This document shows, piece after piece, positions 7,438 to 12,315 of a stretch of 64,000 nucleotides of DNA. A program made the translations under genes and the position numbers. Under the pieces are notes generated by a model. The model worked only from the letters and a program-made list of their open reading frames with translations, was not told the DNA's origin and made no database searches. Location: positions 434,001 to 498,000 of the forward strand of contig NZ_NCSU01000007.1 of NCBI RefSeq assembly GCF_002088945.1, in the 5' to 3' direction. How positions within the stretch are numbered: the first letter of the stretch is position 1; every line of letters begins with the position of its first letter. The DNA comes from Henriciella pelagia (GTDB lineage Bacteria; Pseudomonadota; Alphaproteobacteria; Caulobacterales; Hyphomonadaceae).

Positions 7438-8151
7438 TTATGGCAGCGTTGGCAATTCGGTCGCACGCGCCTCATCGAGATAGCGCGCCCCGGTTGGCTT
7501 CAGTGAGGCATCGAGCTCGATCAGCAGCGGATTGCCGGTCGGGATCTCTACACCGGTAATCGTCTCATCCGGCACGTTGAACAGATGTTTGACCAGCGCG
7601 CGAAGCGAATTGCCATGCGCCGCGATCACGACATCCGTGCCTGATTTCAGCACCGGCGCAATATCGCTCTCCCAGAAGGGCAGCACGCGCTCCAGTGTCA
7701 GTTTAAGGCTTTCGGTCGCGGGCACATCGACGCCGTCATAGCGCGGGTCCTTGGACAGATCGAACTCGCTGCCAGCCTCCATGGGCGGCGGCGGGACATC
7801 ATAGGAGCGACGCCAGATATGAACCTGCTCGTCGCCATGTTTCTCGGCAGTCTGTTTCTTGTCGAGGCCGGTGAGGCCGCCATAATGGCGTTCATTGAGA
7901 CGCCAGTGCTTCTCCACCGGCAGCCAGACCCGGCCCATCGCCGTCAGCGACAGCCACAGCGTGCGGATGGCGCGGGTCTGCACCGAAGAGAAGGCCTGAC
8001 GCGGTTCAAAGCCGGCTGCCTTGAGAAGCTCGCCTGCCCGTTTCGCTTCGGCTTCGCCCTTTTCGGTGAGGTCGGCGTCCCACCAACCCGTGAAGCGGTT
8101 TTCGAGGTTCCACTGGCTCTGGCCGTGTCGGATCAAGGCAAGCGTCGGCAT
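7438..8151 (-). CDS. gpmA: 2,3-bisphosphoglycerate-dependent phosphoglycerate mutase
   Basis: A 237-residue cofactor-dependent mutase interconverting 3- and 2-phosphoglycerate in glycolysis/gluconeogenesis. The phosphohistidine motif [10 protein letters not shown] opens the protein. [15 protein letters not shown], the catalytic Glu region [12 protein letters not shown] and the second histidine in [13 protein letters not shown] are all present. The start is set at 8151 ([10 protein letters not shown]) as in most homologues. ATG at 8160 (MIDMPTL) is an alternative, and an upstream TTG is unlikely. Confidence 0.95.
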
Positions 8152-8270
8152 ATCGATCATCCCGTGCAATTTGTTCTACAACAGCCGCCCTTAGAGCATG
8201 GCCATGCCAAATCCAAGCGCGACACAAAGCGCGCACGCAAGAAACGTGCGCTTCGACGCGCCTGTGCAAC

Positions 8271-9623
8271 CTACTCAAAGGCCAGAGATGCTGGCACGTT
8301 ATTGGACGCGTCTTCGAGCTGACGGACGGCCTCGGCGATATCGGCTTTGTCTGGGTCGGCATGACTTTCGAGCACCGCGCGTTCAAGCACAAGAATCTCG
8401 CTCAGGGCCTCGCAGGCGCATGCAAGCTGATCTGAAACCGACACGCCCTGCGTCCAGAAATCCTCGACGCCGTATGATGTCGCCCCGCCCGACAGGAAGG
8501 CTTTGCCGGCAAACCTCATTCTCATGTTCTCGAGTTTGGCAACAGCGAGCTTTGGCCACTGGATGAAACCGAGCGGATTATCATGCGTCGCTGCATCCTG
8601 AGCGACCCCATCCACATCGCCGCTGAGAAAGAATTCAAGCCGTCTGGTCACGTGCCAGGCGATCATCAGGAGCGAACTGGTCATCGCATCCGCCGCAATG
8701 GCAAGGCCAGGCAGGGCGAATGAACCGCTTGGCACGATGGTCGGCTCACCAGCGGCCGTCTCGGTAAGCTGCGGATTTCCGCTCGGAAGCAGCAGGGCAC
8801 GGTCCAACTCCACTGCGAGGTTTGACAGCGCCATCGCCGTCCCATCGATCACCTGGTCGATCGCGCGGACCGATACCGGCGGCTGACGCATGTCGCCAGC
8901 CGCCGGTCTGGCGTTTTCATACACGAAACCAAGCGCTTCACGGCTCAACGACCGTTGTTCGGGCCGCCGCGACCACTCATCCCGTCCGCCTCCAGGCACC
9001 CGCTCCAGAAAGGCCTTCGTGTTCGCGAGGAGCTGCTTCCAGGCCAGGTTGGCCTGCGACATCGCCCAGGCCGTCACCCCGACATGAACGAAGGCGCCAT
9101 TGATCAACGCCATCCCCTCACCCGGCTTCAGCGTATATCCGGGCGACCGGCCAAGAAGCTCCCGCGCCCAGTGCGCGGCGGGAATGACATCACCGGAAGA
9201 GTAGCTCGCATTTCTGGCAATGGCCGGGGCAAACCCCCTGTCAGCCGTTGCCGACAGAATGTGTCCATAGAGGTCTGGCGAGACGAGGCTTGCGCCAGCC
9301 GCAACCGCATAAGCCTTTGCCAGTGTCACACACACGCCGACATCGCCTGAAAACCAGTTATTCACCGGCACACAATGGCTCTCGATCAGCGTGTTCTGAT
9401 ACCGGGCACTATAATCATCGTCCGGTGCCTCGTCGTCGCGATGTCCCGGCAGGGTTGTCAGGCCATAGATGCGCAAGCCGGGTGAGGCCTCGCGCAGACG
9501 CTCGACCTTAGAATAATCCGCAGCGACGCGTGTCTCTGCCGCGTTCAGACCGGCCGGAAGCTCCCGCGCGGCGCAGGCCTGCAGGAAGGTTCTGAGCGTT
9601 TCAGTCTCGCTTGATCGTTGCAT
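8271..9623 (-). CDS. Divergent HAL/PAL-family (MIO enzyme) protein
   Basis: A 450-residue protein recognisable as a distant aromatic amino acid/histidine ammonia-lyase. Landmarks in order: IYGLTT (Tyr53, family YGxxTGFG), NTLIESHC (family LLxSH), NASYSSGDVIPAAHW at 138-152 (family GSxGASGDLAPLAH), GEGMALINGA at 168-177, ELDRALLLPSGNPQL (family NPL), and GVEDFW at 385-390 (family QEDHVSM). The MIO-forming triad is Ser-Ser-Gly (142-144) instead of Ala-Ser-Gly. The family GNFHG segment reads GSFAL, and the protein is about 50 residues short. It may be an ammonia-lyase, an aminomutase or a binding protein that has lost catalysis. Its start lies inside the 3' end of the 9601-10947 gene, with CGGAG upstream. 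Confidence 0.75.
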   Translation of the reverse strand: MQRSSETETLRTFLQACAARELPAGLNAAETRVAADYSKVERLREASPGLRIYGLTTLPGHRDDEAPDDDYSARYQNTLIESHCVPVNNWFSGDVGVCVTLAKAYAVAAGASLVSPDLYGHILSATADRGFAPAIARNASYSSGDVIPAAHWARELLGRSPGYTLKPGEGMALINGAFVHVGVTAWAMSQANLAWKQLLANTKAFLERVPGGGRDEWSRRPEQRSLSREALGFVYENARPAAGDMRQPPVSVRAIDQVIDGTAMALSNLAVELDRALLLPSGNPQLTETAAGEPTIVPSGSFALPGLAIAADAMTSSLLMIAWHVTRRLEFFLSGDVDGVAQDAATHDNPLGFIQWPKLAVAKLENMRMRFAGKAFLSGGATSYGVEDFWTQGVSVSDQLACACEALSEILVLERAVLESHADPDKADIAEAVRQLEDASNNVPASLAFE

Positions 9624-10947
9624 ACAGAGCTCCGGCTAGCACGAGGATAGCCACCACATGCATGGCGATATTGAAATCCATCCACCTAAAAAGATCGTAA
9701 GCGCCAGCGATTTCAAAGTTTCGCGTCTCACCCGCAAAGTCGAACAGGTCCACCACAAGGGACAAGAGCTGCGCTGCGCCGAGCAGGAAGATGACGAATT
9801 GCAGCGTCCTTCTGTCGGACCGCTGGAGCAGGAACGACTTGCGGTCCAGCCTCGACTGCACCAGCTCATCGCGCCTTCTAACAGCATCGATCAGTTGCCG
9901 TGTTCCGAACACCTCATTCAGGCTGTCGAAGAGAACGCGCCGGTTTCCCTGAAAGGATATCTCGGCATTCGACAGCTCATTGCCCGTGAACTCGATGAAG
10001 TTCTCCATCCTGTGATAATTCTTGATGGAGCGCCTCATCTGCTTCATCGAATCCTGCGAGGCAATCTCCCGGTACATCCTGTTCTGATTGGAATTGAGGA
10101 TGTCGAACAGGCAGTAGAAGTATTGCGAGACCGAACACGACCGCAGGAAGTCTTCGAGAAGGCCGGCCTCGCCGACCACGCTCGATCCGACGTGGAGATG
10201 GCAACCGTCCCTGACATTCTTTCCCAGGGTCAGGATGTCGCCCGCCCTCAGCAGCTGCATGACGGCCGGACTGTTCCGCATCTCTTCATCAACGACATAG
10301 ATGCGGTGCGCCCAGAACATGGCGTGGTCCTCCTGGCTCCATCTGGGATAGGGGTGATGGTTGAGATCGGAGAAAATGAGGTAGGCGTTCTGAGGTCTCG
10401 TGAACGGCGCGCCTCCAACCTTTCGGCCCGACAGCGCGCTGAGCGGCTCTGAAAGAATCGTATTGCTGAAGTCCTGAACCGCCGCGTCGGCAAGATCGGA
10501 AAGAAAGCACTCGAACACACTCGGATCCACACCAGACGGGACCCTTGAGAGGTCCAGCGCGCCGGTCAGGCTTGCGACTGCAAGCGTATTGTCGAAGCAC
10601 TCAATGTACCCGCCGAGTTCGAGCGATGCGATAAGCGGGCGCCAAAGCGGGTCATCATGGGCGTCTGCAAAGCGAGTGATCACCTCTCGAAAATACACAT
10701 CCGACAAGTGCACCTTGGCCAGTGGGCGACAGAACCAGGGGATTGAATCATCCGCCAGCGTTCTGAGCCCCCGCTTGGTATCATCCAGCGACGGCTCCAG
10801 CACCTCCACCGACATCACCTCTGCCCGCGCAGCCGCAGAGCTGAATGCCCGCTCCAGCTCCCTGGCCGCCTCCTGCCGGTGCACGCTCAGATGTTCGGAT
10901 TCGGCATTGAGCAAAGTCCTGAACGGAACGGAAAGCCCGAACTTCAT
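9601..10947 (-). CDS. Orphan protein with C-terminal two-helix membrane anchor
   Basis: A 448-residue protein with no recognised domain. About 350 soluble residues lead into a helical, charged stretch (NELSNAEISFQGNRRVLFDS, then VRRRDELVQSRLDRKSFLLQ). Two hydrophobic helices follow, about 380-403 and 420-443, and a short charged tail ends in IKRD. The long helix plus two C-terminal TM helices recall CorA topology, but no GMN motif is visible between them, so CorA is not claimed. His-rich and aromatic patches (LNHHPYPRW, DGCHLHVG) are notable. ATG 10947 has AGGGGGA upstream. The 23-base overlap with the MIO-family gene downstream indicates an operon. Base composition is visibly lower in GC than the neighbours, suggesting transfer. 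Confidence 0.7.
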   Translation of the reverse strand: MKFGLSVPFRTLLNAESEHLSVHRQEAARELERAFSSAAARAEVMSVEVLEPSLDDTKRGLRTLADDSIPWFCRPLAKVHLSDVYFREVITRFADAHDDPLWRPLIASLELGGYIECFDNTLAVASLTGALDLSRVPSGVDPSVFECFLSDLADAAVQDFSNTILSEPLSALSGRKVGGAPFTRPQNAYLIFSDLNHHPYPRWSQEDHAMFWAHRIYVVDEEMRNSPAVMQLLRAGDILTLGKNVRDGCHLHVGSSVVGEAGLLEDFLRSCSVSQYFYCLFDILNSNQNRMYREIASQDSMKQMRRSIKNYHRMENFIEFTGNELSNAEISFQGNRRVLFDSLNEVFGTRQLIDAVRRRDELVQSRLDRKSFLLQRSDRRTLQFVIFLLGAAQLLSLVVDLFDFAGETRNFEIAGAYDLFRWMDFNIAMHVVAILVLAGALYATIKRD

Positions 10948-11048
10948 ACACAGTCCCCCTTATTCGACCCTGAGAGGTGTACGGAACGAAGACGTCCTGA
11001 TCCAGACCTGCCGGCCAATTGCCTTGTGCCCGAACGCGATCGGACCTC

Positions 11049-12185
11049 TCAAACGCCCGTTACCCGGATCAGCTCGGCAAAGGCCAGCACGACATGATAC
11101 CCGGTCGAAGCCGGCATGACCTCCGTCGCGACCTGGCCGTCGGCATCGAACCGGTCAATCCAGCCGCCTTCCGGCGTCAGGTATTCATCCATCAGGATGT
11201 CGAAACTGCGCACGGCCTCAGCATCGCACGGGGTCTCGGTGCCAAGCTCCAGCATGGCAAGATGCGCCTTCAGCGCTTCGGTCTGCATCCATGTGCGGCG
11301 GGAGGCATCAACAATCGTGCCATCCCGCAGCGATGTCGTCAGCGCCCGGCCCTCCTCATCCAGCGTGCCGAGTGCAAATGTATAGAGCTTCAGGATGTCC
11401 GGGTGCAGCTCCTCGCCGGTCAGCGCCGCGTGACGTTGCAACAGCCACACCCATTCAAACTGGTGGCCGGGCTCGATTTCATCATGATGCTCACCGCTTG
11501 CCGGCGACCAGTCCGGCGCGAAATACTCGCCAAGCGTCACGCTCTCCTTGTCCAGCATGCGTGTCGTGAACAGCTGGATGATGCCATTCGCGCGCGCCAG
11601 GTGGCCGCCATGCGGGTCGGCCCGGTGCAGGGCGTGGCAAGCCTCCAGCAGGTGCATGTGCGGGTTCTGCAGCCGGTGGGCGCCCTTCGGCAGGCTCTCG
11701 GCATAACCGCCATAATCGGGATCCGCGAGCCCCCTGTCGACAGCCGCCAGGACCTCCTTTGCAATGCCCAGCGCATGGTCTTCGCCGGCCTCGGCCGCAT
11801 TCGCCAGCGCGTAGAGCGCAAACGCAGTGTCATAGAGATCAGCCGCCGCATCCACCATGCCGGACCCGTCGCTCGCCAGCACCTTGCCAATCAGGCCATC
11901 GGCCCGACGCGACGGCCCCTTCAGCGCATTGACGCCAAGCTTGATCAGCCGCTCGGCGCGCTCCCGCTCCCAGCCAAGACGCAGCGCTTCGCAGAACACA
12001 TAGGTCTGGCGCGCCTGCACCCTTACCCGCATCCTGTCGGCCTCGACTGGCCTGTGCGACAGGTCGAGCGCCTCGTGATAGAGGCCGTGCCCTGCCAGGC
12101 CATGTTCGGCCCAGAGCGGGAAACACGCATCCAGCATCCAGCTCCGCGCTTCACGCGCTCGCCGTTTCAGGGCAGATGAAATCAT
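11049..12185 (-). CDS. AGE family sugar epimerase/isomerase
   Basis: A 378-residue (alpha/alpha)6-barrel protein of the N-acylglucosamine 2-epimerase / mannose isomerase family. Motifs are RVRVQARQTYVFCEA, GYAESLPKGAHRLQNPHMHLLEA, EPGHQFEWVWLL (catalytic His region) and PASTGYHVVLAFAEL. The most likely substrates are mannose/fructose or their phosphates; the sequence does not separate these from cellobiose epimerases. The start is placed at ATG 12185 (MISSALKRR), because the longer frame begins with TTG. It is the only gene on its strand here and is not coupled to the neighbours. Confidence 0.85.
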   Translation of the reverse strand: MISSALKRRAREARSWMLDACFPLWAEHGLAGHGLYHEALDLSHRPVEADRMRVRVQARQTYVFCEALRLGWERERAERLIKLGVNALKGPSRRADGLIGKVLASDGSGMVDAAADLYDTAFALYALANAAEAGEDHALGIAKEVLAAVDRGLADPDYGGYAESLPKGAHRLQNPHMHLLEACHALHRADPHGGHLARANGIIQLFTTRMLDKESVTLGEYFAPDWSPASGEHHDEIEPGHQFEWVWLLQRHAALTGEELHPDILKLYTFALGTLDEEGRALTTSLRDGTIVDASRRTWMQTEALKAHLAMLELGTETPCDAEAVRSFDILMDEYLTPEGGWIDRFDADGQVATEVMPASTGYHVVLAFAELIRVTGV

Positions 12186-12315
12186 ACCGGGCTGACTCTC
12201 CAACAGGTTTCAGGCCAATGGGTTTGAGGGCTCGCCTCTTCCTGCGGGCATTGCTATCAAGCCGCCAACATGATTTCCACTGCCACGACCGGGCATATTT
12301 GCATCAAGGGCGACC

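What the first reader, a model, noticed from the sequence alone, without database searches (positions are those of the whole stretch)
8271..9623. Divergent MIO-family lyase homologue with Ser-Ser-Gly triad and missing active-site segments
The order of HAL/PAL landmarks is unmistakable, but several catalytic segments have changed: Ser-Ser-Gly at 142-144 for the MIO-forming Ala-Ser-Gly, GSFAL for GNFHG, and VEDFW for QEDHV. This points to a branch with altered substrate or chemistry, or a pseudoenzyme. It is not next to histidine-utilisation or phenylpropanoid genes.
Basis: partly seen in the sequence, partly recalled or inferred. Interest (0 to 1): 0.7.

Follow-up and report, generated by a model that had tools for sequence, protein, structure and literature searches.

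The report
MIO-lyase relative paired with CorA-like protein
A relative of histidine-degrading enzymes that keeps the catalytic core but has a changed pocket is encoded, in each of the few genomes where it was found, together with a magnesium-channel-like membrane protein, which suggests that it handles a small amino-acid-type signal for that membrane protein rather than feeding on histidine.

Summary
The ORF is real: minus strand, 8271-9623, 450 aa, PF00221 at 91 bits, HAL/TAM fold in the predicted model. Ser-Ser-Gly, GSFAL and VEDFW are as described, but the catalytic residues are not missing: Tyr53, His83, Gly144, Asp145, Asn175, Gln247, Arg253, Phe302 and Glu387 are identical in 12 of 12 family members and 27 of 27 ordinary homologues. 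[quoted passage not shown] Clade-specific changes: Ser142, Val/Ile250, Ala/Val/Leu303, Phe/Leu/Ile389.

The main finding lies next door. In 12 of 12 loci, in Alpha- and Gammaproteobacteria, the gene follows a ~450-aa CorA-like membrane protein; 11 of 12 pairs overlap. The pair is a two-gene cassette beside gpm in 2 of 30 gpm loci (29 genus genomes); in 10 others AGE and gpm are adjacent. The own genome has no other PF00221 gene and no urocanase.

Best reading: a probably active MIO enzyme that turns over an amino-acid-type ligand for a CorA-type membrane protein, as in CorA plus SAM-AMP-degrading-enzyme pairs of type III CRISPR. The CorA kinship is weak by sequence; ligand and chemistry are not shown.

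The parts
8271..9623 (-). MIO-fold lyase homologue, 450 aa; the finding
   Evidence: PF00221 91.3 bits; AlphaFold2 mean pLDDT 84.2, pTM 0.87; PDB fold matches TAM/HAL; 12-member family alignment A3
9192..9200 (-). Ser142-Ser143-Gly144, the MIO-forming triad position
   Evidence: Alignment with 27 ordinary homologues, 27 of 27 Ala-Ser-Gly; family: position 142 Ser 12 of 12, position 143 Ser 9, Cys 2, Ala 1
9601..10947 (-). CorA-like membrane protein, 448 aa, no Pfam or NCBIfam hit; soluble alpha/beta plus helical domain, long stalk helix, two C-terminal TM helices
   Evidence: AlphaFold2 pLDDT 87.6; first 15 Foldseek PDB rows all CorA, best E 7.1e-3, prob 0.91-1.00; PADLOC CorA E = 0.0013
9601..9623 (-). 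23-nt overlap of the end of the CorA-like gene with the start of the lyase-like gene (probable translational coupling)
   Evidence: overlap in 11 of 12 loci (4 to 59 nt), 11-nt gap in L039; start codons chosen by me
9742..9798 (-). predicted TM helix 1 (residues 384-402)
   Evidence: Hydropathy, inside helix 349-407 of the model
9613..9669 (-). predicted TM helix 2 (residues 427-445)
   Evidence: Hydropathy, helix 425-445 of the model
8170..11048 (.). extent of the two-gene cassette between gpm (7438-8169) and the AGE-like gene (11049-12203)
   Evidence: AGE and gpm matches lie 43-108 bp apart in 10 of 30 gpm loci from 29 genomes of the genus; lyase gene beside gpm in 2 of 30
7438..8169 (-). 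flank: 2,3-bisphosphoglycerate-dependent phosphoglycerate mutase (housekeeping)
   Evidence: NCBIfam 336 bits
11049..12203 (-). flank: N-acylglucosamine 2-epimerase-like protein (AGE)
   Evidence: PF07221 205 bits

Best explanation
The gene encodes a member of a separate clade of the MIO (HAL/PAL/TAL) fold that is a constant partner of a CorA-like membrane protein encoded just upstream. Shown: the pair stands as one two-gene unit, overlapping in 11 of 12, in all 12 loci found, and the catalytic core of MIO enzymes is intact while the pocket is changed. Inferred: the protein still forms MIO (possible in 11 of 12 members) and binds the alpha-amino/carboxylate group of an amino-acid-type ligand. 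By removing or altering that ligand it controls opening of the CorA-like channel, much as SAM-AMP-degrading enzymes accompany CorA effectors in type III CRISPR. The ligand is unknown; free histidine as a food source is unlikely.
For: Partner directly upstream in 12 of 12 loci that were collected by the lyase sequence alone. Genes further out differ where scanned (8 proteins from 5 of the 12 loci: DAHP synthase, acyl-CoA dehydrogenase, HemN-like, glutamine amidotransferase, ankyrin ORF and others). Core residues identical in 39 of 39 sequences, pocket residues switched in 12 of 12. One group in the tree, 100/100. Partner model matches CorA first, with distant similarity to PADLOC CorA proteins (hhalign E 5.6e-4 but probability only 30). 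Most published type III CRISPR CorA effectors are accompanied by NrN, DEDD or SAM-AMP lyase (passages). Other members of the same CorA-like family sit beside other genes: SBP_bac_3-like ORFs in 5 loci, SET-like ORFs in 4, a small unclassified ORF in 2.
Against: No ligand, activity or MIO formation is shown. The CorA kinship is weak by sequence: PADLOC CorA matched 1 of 11 partner-family proteins scanned; a profile of 12 partners found no CorA in the PDB; Foldseek gives none at or below E 0.001; hhalign probability is 30. The family lacks GMN or GGN near the C-terminus in 16 of 16, while 5 of 6 PADLOC-type CorA proteins have it. A divergent CRISPR CorA clade has no degrading enzyme. No Cas10 over the Pfam cut-off in the own genome, so no messenger maker is identified. 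PADLOC does not recognise the lyase-like protein; flanks were not scanned for defence genes. The clade is rare: 0 of 369 genomes of one class at E 1e-30, the two matches there being ordinary Ala-Ser-Gly homologues. L039 has Ser-Ala-Gly. The small ORF that I took by eye for SAM-lyase-like failed the tests made.
Confidence: 0.4

Rival explanations
1. A ligand-sensing pseudoenzyme: the MIO-fold protein no longer does chemistry but binds an amino acid or derivative and regulates the CorA-like channel by direct contact.
For: Tyr250 of the 27 ordinary homologues is Val/Ile in 12 of 12; L039 has Ala at the MIO serine yet keeps the other core residues. Overlapping genes fit a stoichiometric complex. 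Other members of the CorA-like family sit beside SBP_bac_3-like, presumably ligand-binding, proteins.
Against: 11 of 12 keep Ser or Cys at the MIO position, and all keep Tyr53, His83, Asn175 and Glu387, whose counterparts abolish HAL activity when mutated. A pure sensor has no evident need for Asp145 and the full catalytic set.
Confidence: 0.26
2. An ordinary catabolic or biosynthetic ammonia-lyase/aminomutase for an unusual amino acid, with the CorA-like protein acting as its uptake or efflux partner or as an ion-homeostasis protein.
For: Conserved catalytic core and His83 (the review names the corresponding TAL residue, His89 in Rhodobacter, as a selectivity switch; the correspondence to His83 is recalled); PF00221 membership.
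Against: I saw no pathway genes recurring around the pair (8 outer proteins from 5 loci scanned). The CorA fold is a channel, not a known amino-acid transporter (general knowledge). The pair is sporadic, and the two copies in the genus are 59-68% identical while the six flanking genes compared are 79-91% identical, which is unusual for housekeeping metabolism.
Confidence: 0.24
3. An ordinary histidine ammonia-lyase whose motifs only look odd.
For: Same fold, His83 and Glu387 retained; 5 of 12 carrier genomes have a urocanase.
Against: 19% identity to P. putida HAL in the structural match; hutH model 59 bits against a cut-off of 539; separate clade; no urocanase found in the own genome and 6 other carriers (7 of 12; some are incomplete assemblies); the 5 carriers with urocanase (G060, G120, G681, G684, G685) also hold a second, lower-scoring homologue.
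Confidence: 0.04

Closest known systems
Histidine ammonia-lyase and aromatic MIO enzymes (PF00221)
   Same: Fold, order of landmarks, Tyr53/His83/Gly144/Asp145/Asn175/Gln247/Arg253/Phe302/Glu387, and a triad able in principle to form MIO
   Different: Ser at triad position 1; Tyr to Val/Ile, His to Ala/Val/Leu and His to Phe/Leu/Ile in the pocket; 450-467 aa against 494-709 in the 27 compared; no hut neighbours seen; overlapping CorA-like gene
Ergothionase (PDB 6s7j), a MIO-fold enzyme with a non-standard substrate
   Same: MIO fold put to another substrate; among the nearest solved structures
   Different: 16-17% identity in the structural match; whether ergothionase genes have a CorA-like neighbour was not checked
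CorA plus NrN, DEDD or SAM-AMP lyase pairs of type III CRISPR
   Same: Gene pair of a CorA-type membrane protein with a soluble enzyme; in CRISPR the enzyme degrades the amino-acid-containing messenger SAM-AMP (passages)
   Different: No cas genes noticed in the flanks read; a MIO fold instead of DHH, DEDD or PII fold; partner lacks GMN; messenger unknown; CorA kinship weak by sequence

Membership tests
PF00221 aromatic amino acid lyase (MIO superfamily) | Significant profile match over most of the domain | tested here: met
   E 7.2e-26, residues 28-415 to profile 21-437 of 466
PF00221 aromatic amino acid lyase (MIO superfamily) | HAL-type all-helical fold | tested here: met
   Model pTM 0.87; PDB TAM/HAL TM-score 0.78-0.79 by query, prob 1.00. 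Residues 378-387 have pLDDT under 50, so the Glu387 loop is not validated by the model.
[quoted passage not shown]
   Window: Ser-Ser-Gly; triad rule from a review passage (PMC9002059). 9 of 12 family members fit it; 2 are Ser-Cys-Gly and 1 is Ser-Ala-Gly.
PF00221 aromatic amino acid lyase (MIO superfamily) | MIO actually formed, ammonia elimination or 2,3-amino shift | not testable with these tools
   Needs purified protein
Histidine ammonia-lyase (HutH) | Passes the hutH equivalog cut-off | tested here: not met
   TIGR01225 59 bits against 539
Histidine ammonia-lyase (HutH) | Works in histidine utilisation (urocanase present) | tested here: not met
   No urocanase in G000; 5 of 12 carrier genomes have one
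CorA superfamily (partner gene) | Alpha/beta cytosolic domain, long stalk helix, two C-terminal TM helices | tested here: met
   Foldseek prob 0.91-1.00 in the first 15 rows but E only 7e-3
CorA superfamily (partner gene) | Recognisable CorA sequence (Pfam, PADLOC or PDB profile) | tested here: inconclusive
   Pfam none; PADLOC CorA 1 of 11 proteins, E 0.0013; PDB profile search no CorA; hhalign to six PADLOC-type CorA proteins E 5.6e-4, probability 30
CorA superfamily (partner gene) | GMN selectivity motif at the end of TM1 (motif recalled) | tested here: not met
   Neither GMN nor GGN in the last 120 residues of 16 of 16
Type III CRISPR CorA/SAM-AMP system | cas genes or Cas10 nearby as messenger maker | tested here: not met
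   No PF22335 match over cut-off in G000; matches over cut-off in 4 of the other 11 carriers (26-35 bits), but the model also rings in the E. coli control, so it is unspecific. No cas genes noticed by eye in the ORFs; no systematic cas search of the flanks.
Type III CRISPR CorA/SAM-AMP system | Partner enzyme is NrN, DEDD or PII-type lyase | tested here: not met
   Partner is a MIO fold

The most novel reading that the evidence does not exclude
A MIO-fold enzyme has been recruited as the messenger-processing half of a stand-alone signalling unit: an unknown amino-acid-containing signal opens a CorA-type membrane effector, and the MIO enzyme destroys or edits that signal. The same effector family would be paired elsewhere with other amino-acid- or SAM-related partners (SBP_bac_3-like, SET, a small unclassified ORF).
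Probability: 0.3. Interest if true: 0.85.

Novelty: new variant of a known kind. Interest (0 to 1): 0.6.

Why it matters
MIO enzymes are known as catabolic or natural-product enzymes. A clade tied in every locus found to a CorA-like membrane protein would be a link between MIO chemistry and membrane-effector signalling that I did not find in the paper searches made, and could reveal an amino-acid-derived second messenger outside CRISPR. It also corrects the view of this gene as a broken HAL.

Tried and rejected
Pseudoenzyme by loss of the catalytic core: not supported for the window protein. Ordinary HAL: rejected. Phage or plasmid carriage: two viral contig scans, with A3 and A4, confirmed 0 relatives (46 and 13 pattern stretches); a plasmid search with the partner gave none, and the lyase query hit 113 plasmid records, all under 60% identity, 24.6-26.9% in the 40 rows listed. 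Small ORF beside L053/L075 as a SAM-AMP-lyase homologue: suspected by eye, not supported by PDB searches, plasmid and phage searches or comparison with the T3 protein annotated 'SAM-dependent methyltransferase', which I recall as SAM hydrolase/lyase; only a weak PADLOC Csx1 match (E 8e-4) and a sub-cut-off DUF4899 match. L047 and L079 are false hits of the partner profile (a 970-aa frame and a subtilase-like ORF, judged by eye). Searches turned out to be the same order searched twice. PF22335 as a Cas10 detector is unspecific, ringing in E. coli. Paper searches, of which I read the listings: CorA with histidine ammonia-lyase and operon (8 of 8 listed), MIO pseudoenzymes (3 of 3), natural triad variants (15 of 26 listed, none holding Ser-Ser-Gly, 4 of 4), HAL active-site residue numbers (none), CorA with SAM-AMP, AdoMetDC, stand-alone or SET terms (8 of 8, 12 of 890, 6 of 6, 6 of 11). 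No listed title concerned this pairing. Passages were read in PMC12255297, PMC11229360, PMC10600005, PMC9002059, PMC11432326, PMC8195603 and PMC12839542; in the last two the hits for the word CorA were to corals.

Full report
Observation. The finding's coordinates hold a 450-aa ORF on the minus strand. Pfam PF00221 matches residues 28-415 at 91.3 bits (cut-off 27.3), while the histidine ammonia-lyase equivalog model gives only 59 bits against 539. It is the only PF00221 match in its 3.44-Mb genome. An AlphaFold2 model from an alignment of 12 sequences (mean pLDDT 84.2, pTM 0.87) matches Streptomyces tyrosine aminomutase and Pseudomonas HAL first (E about 3e-13, TM-score 0.78-0.79 by query). 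Residues 378-387 of the model are below pLDDT 50.

What is and is not changed. I aligned the 12 family members with 27 ordinary MIO homologues: 25 loci (the best-scoring 25 of its 89 other matches, the ones for which loci were given) and 2; none of these 27 was dropped. Tyr53, His83, Gly144, Asp145, Asn175, Gln247, Arg253, Phe302 and Glu387 are the same in 39 of 39. In Geobacillus HAL, mutation of Y52, H82, N194 and E411 abolished activity, and mutation of Q274, R280 and F325 reduced it (passages of PMC11432326); I pair these with Y53, H83, N175, E387, Q247, R253 and F302. The family differs at position 142 (Ser in 12 of 12; Ala in 27 of 27), 250 (Val/Ile; Tyr), 303 (Ala/Val/Leu; His), 389 (Phe/Leu/Ile; His) and 61 (His in 12 of 12; not His in the 27). 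The reactive position 143 is Ser in 9, Cys in 2 (L037, L040) and Ala in 1 (L039). [quoted passage not shown] Thus no catalytic residue of that set is missing; the spacing between His83 and Asn175 is about 20 residues shorter. By recall, not from a call, a Cys in place of the MIO serine is tolerated in HAL.

A separate clade. In a maximum-likelihood tree of the 39 rows the 12 members are one side of a branch with support 100/100. Branches are long and four rows (L004, L038, L041, L059) have an unusual make-up, so only the split is used.

The partner. An upstream ORF (9601-10947, 448 aa) overlaps the lyase-like gene by 23 nt. I collected relatives using the lyase sequence alone: 4 close ones besides the window's own genome among 299 genomes of the order and 10 loci among the species genomes. 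Three of those 10 are contigs of the same length and range as (L032, L033, L035), which leaves 12 distinct loci with the window. In 12 of 12 a homologue of the upstream ORF lies directly before the lyase-like gene on the same strand, overlapping by 4 to 59 nt in 11 and separated by 11 nt in L039 (start codons chosen by me). Named hosts include Ponticaulis, Hyphomonas, Erythrobacter, Rubrimonas, and MAGs of Kangiella, Oleiphilaceae and another gammaproteobacterium. Genes further out differ where scanned (8 proteins from 5 loci: DAHP synthase, aspartyl protease, acyl-CoA dehydrogenase, alpha/beta hydrolase, a HemN-like protein, a solute-binding protein, glutamine amidotransferase, ankyrin repeats). 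The clade is rare: in 369 genomes of the class of G617 only 2 matches passed E 1e-30, and both are ordinary Ala-Ser-Gly homologues.

What the partner is. It has no Pfam or NCBIfam match (relatives). Its model (pLDDT 87.6) has an alpha/beta domain, helical bundle, a long helix 349-407 and a last helix 425-445; the two hydrophobic stretches fall at 384-402 and 427-445. The first 15 PDB rows are all CorA, with probability 0.91-1.00 but E no better than 7e-3. PADLOC's CorA model matches the window protein at residues 315-406, E 0.0013, but none of the 10 other family members scanned. A profile of 12 partners found no CorA in the PDB by sequence. A profile of 16 relatives aligns with six PADLOC-type CorA proteins over 161 columns at E 5.6e-4, probability 30. 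I read this as CorA superfamily, distant, resting mainly on the fold. Neither GMN nor GGN occurs in the last 120 residues of 16 of 16; 4 of the 6 PADLOC-type proteins have GMN and 1 has GGN.

A cassette. In 30 gpm loci from 29 genomes of the genus, the lyase-like gene stands beside gpm in 2 (the window and G060). AGE and gpm matches lie 43-108 bp apart in 10; in 2 (L089, L092) another small ORF lies between them; in 16 no AGE was seen within the fetched stretch. In G060 the six flanking genes compared are 79-91% identical to the window's, but the CorA-like protein is 68% and the lyase-like protein 59% identical, so the pair was gained and diverges fast, or was gained twice.

Context of the partner family. 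A profile search of 398 genomes of the phylum with the partner alignment found 6 with a match, one of them (L047) false by eye, and 197 genomes of one order gave 11 with a match, one of them (L079) false by eye (one search repeats 46). Outside the lyase type, members sit before an SBP_bac_3-like ORF in 5 loci (L055, L056, L072, L073, L074), before a small unclassified ORF in 2 (L053, L075), and after a SET-like ORF in 4 (L076, L077, L078, L080). Pfam was run on 2 of the 5 SBP ORFs (L045 = L055, below its cut-off; L072, above it) and on 2 of the 4 SET ORFs (L076, L080); the rest are by eye. The SET-associated members match the profile only at E 1e-14 to 3e-7 where the output shows it. Two copies in G639 have none of these partners.

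How it may work. In type III CRISPR, CorA-family effectors bind SAM-AMP and most are encoded beside enzymes that degrade it (NrN, DEDD or SAM-AMP lyase); CorA alone showed some toxicity and the enzyme was needed for immunity (passages of PMC10600005, PMC12255297 and PMC11229360). By analogy I propose that the MIO-fold protein removes or edits an amino-acid-type ligand of the CorA-like protein. Shown: pairing, intact core, changed pocket, cassette nature. Inferred: MIO formation, ligand class, gating, and any role in conflict or defence. The own genome has no urocanase and no PF22335 match over the cut-off; I noticed no cas genes by eye in the flanks but did not search them systematically.

Limits. 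The homologue set is small (12, two of them 422 of 453 positions identical: L005 and L034). The CRISPR analogy is functional, not a proven homology. I did not find a messenger synthase. A resemblance of the small ORF to SAM lyases was tested and not supported.

Noticed in passing
L085:2985-4385 and L086:1-1173: In G801 and G900 a PADLOC-type CorA gene is followed by an ORF with a Cas10/Cmr2 palm2-like match (Pfam E 1e-5, just under the cut-off, for the L085 ORF; genome-search matches over the cut-off at both places). It could be a stand-alone CorA plus cyclase-like pair; the model is unspecific.
   Followed up: partly
L076:4369-4842, L080:1585-2133 (also ORFs in L077, L078): A SET-domain ORF lies directly before a divergent CorA-like membrane protein (Pfam run on L076 and L080 only).
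   Followed up: partly
L055, L056, L072, L073, L074: The CorA-like protein is followed by an SBP_bac_3-like ORF; in 4 of the 5 (not L055) an ORF of 181-207 aa that looks like a membrane protein (YgjV-like by recall) comes next.
   Followed up: partly
L053:6741-7202 and L075:6950-7300: Small ORFs (153 and 116 aa, 34% identical) overlap the end of the CorA-like gene and share a VTAHHFKL ending; function unknown.
   Followed up: partly
L089:2338-2961 and L092:2366-2866: Another small ORF (207 and 166 aa), unrelated to the cassette by eye, lies at the same site between AGE and gpm in two relatives, so the site may be an insertion hot spot.
   Followed up: no
L054 (G639:C1) and L048 (G639:C5): One genome carries two copies of the CorA-like gene with no lyase-like partner beside either.
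   Followed up: no
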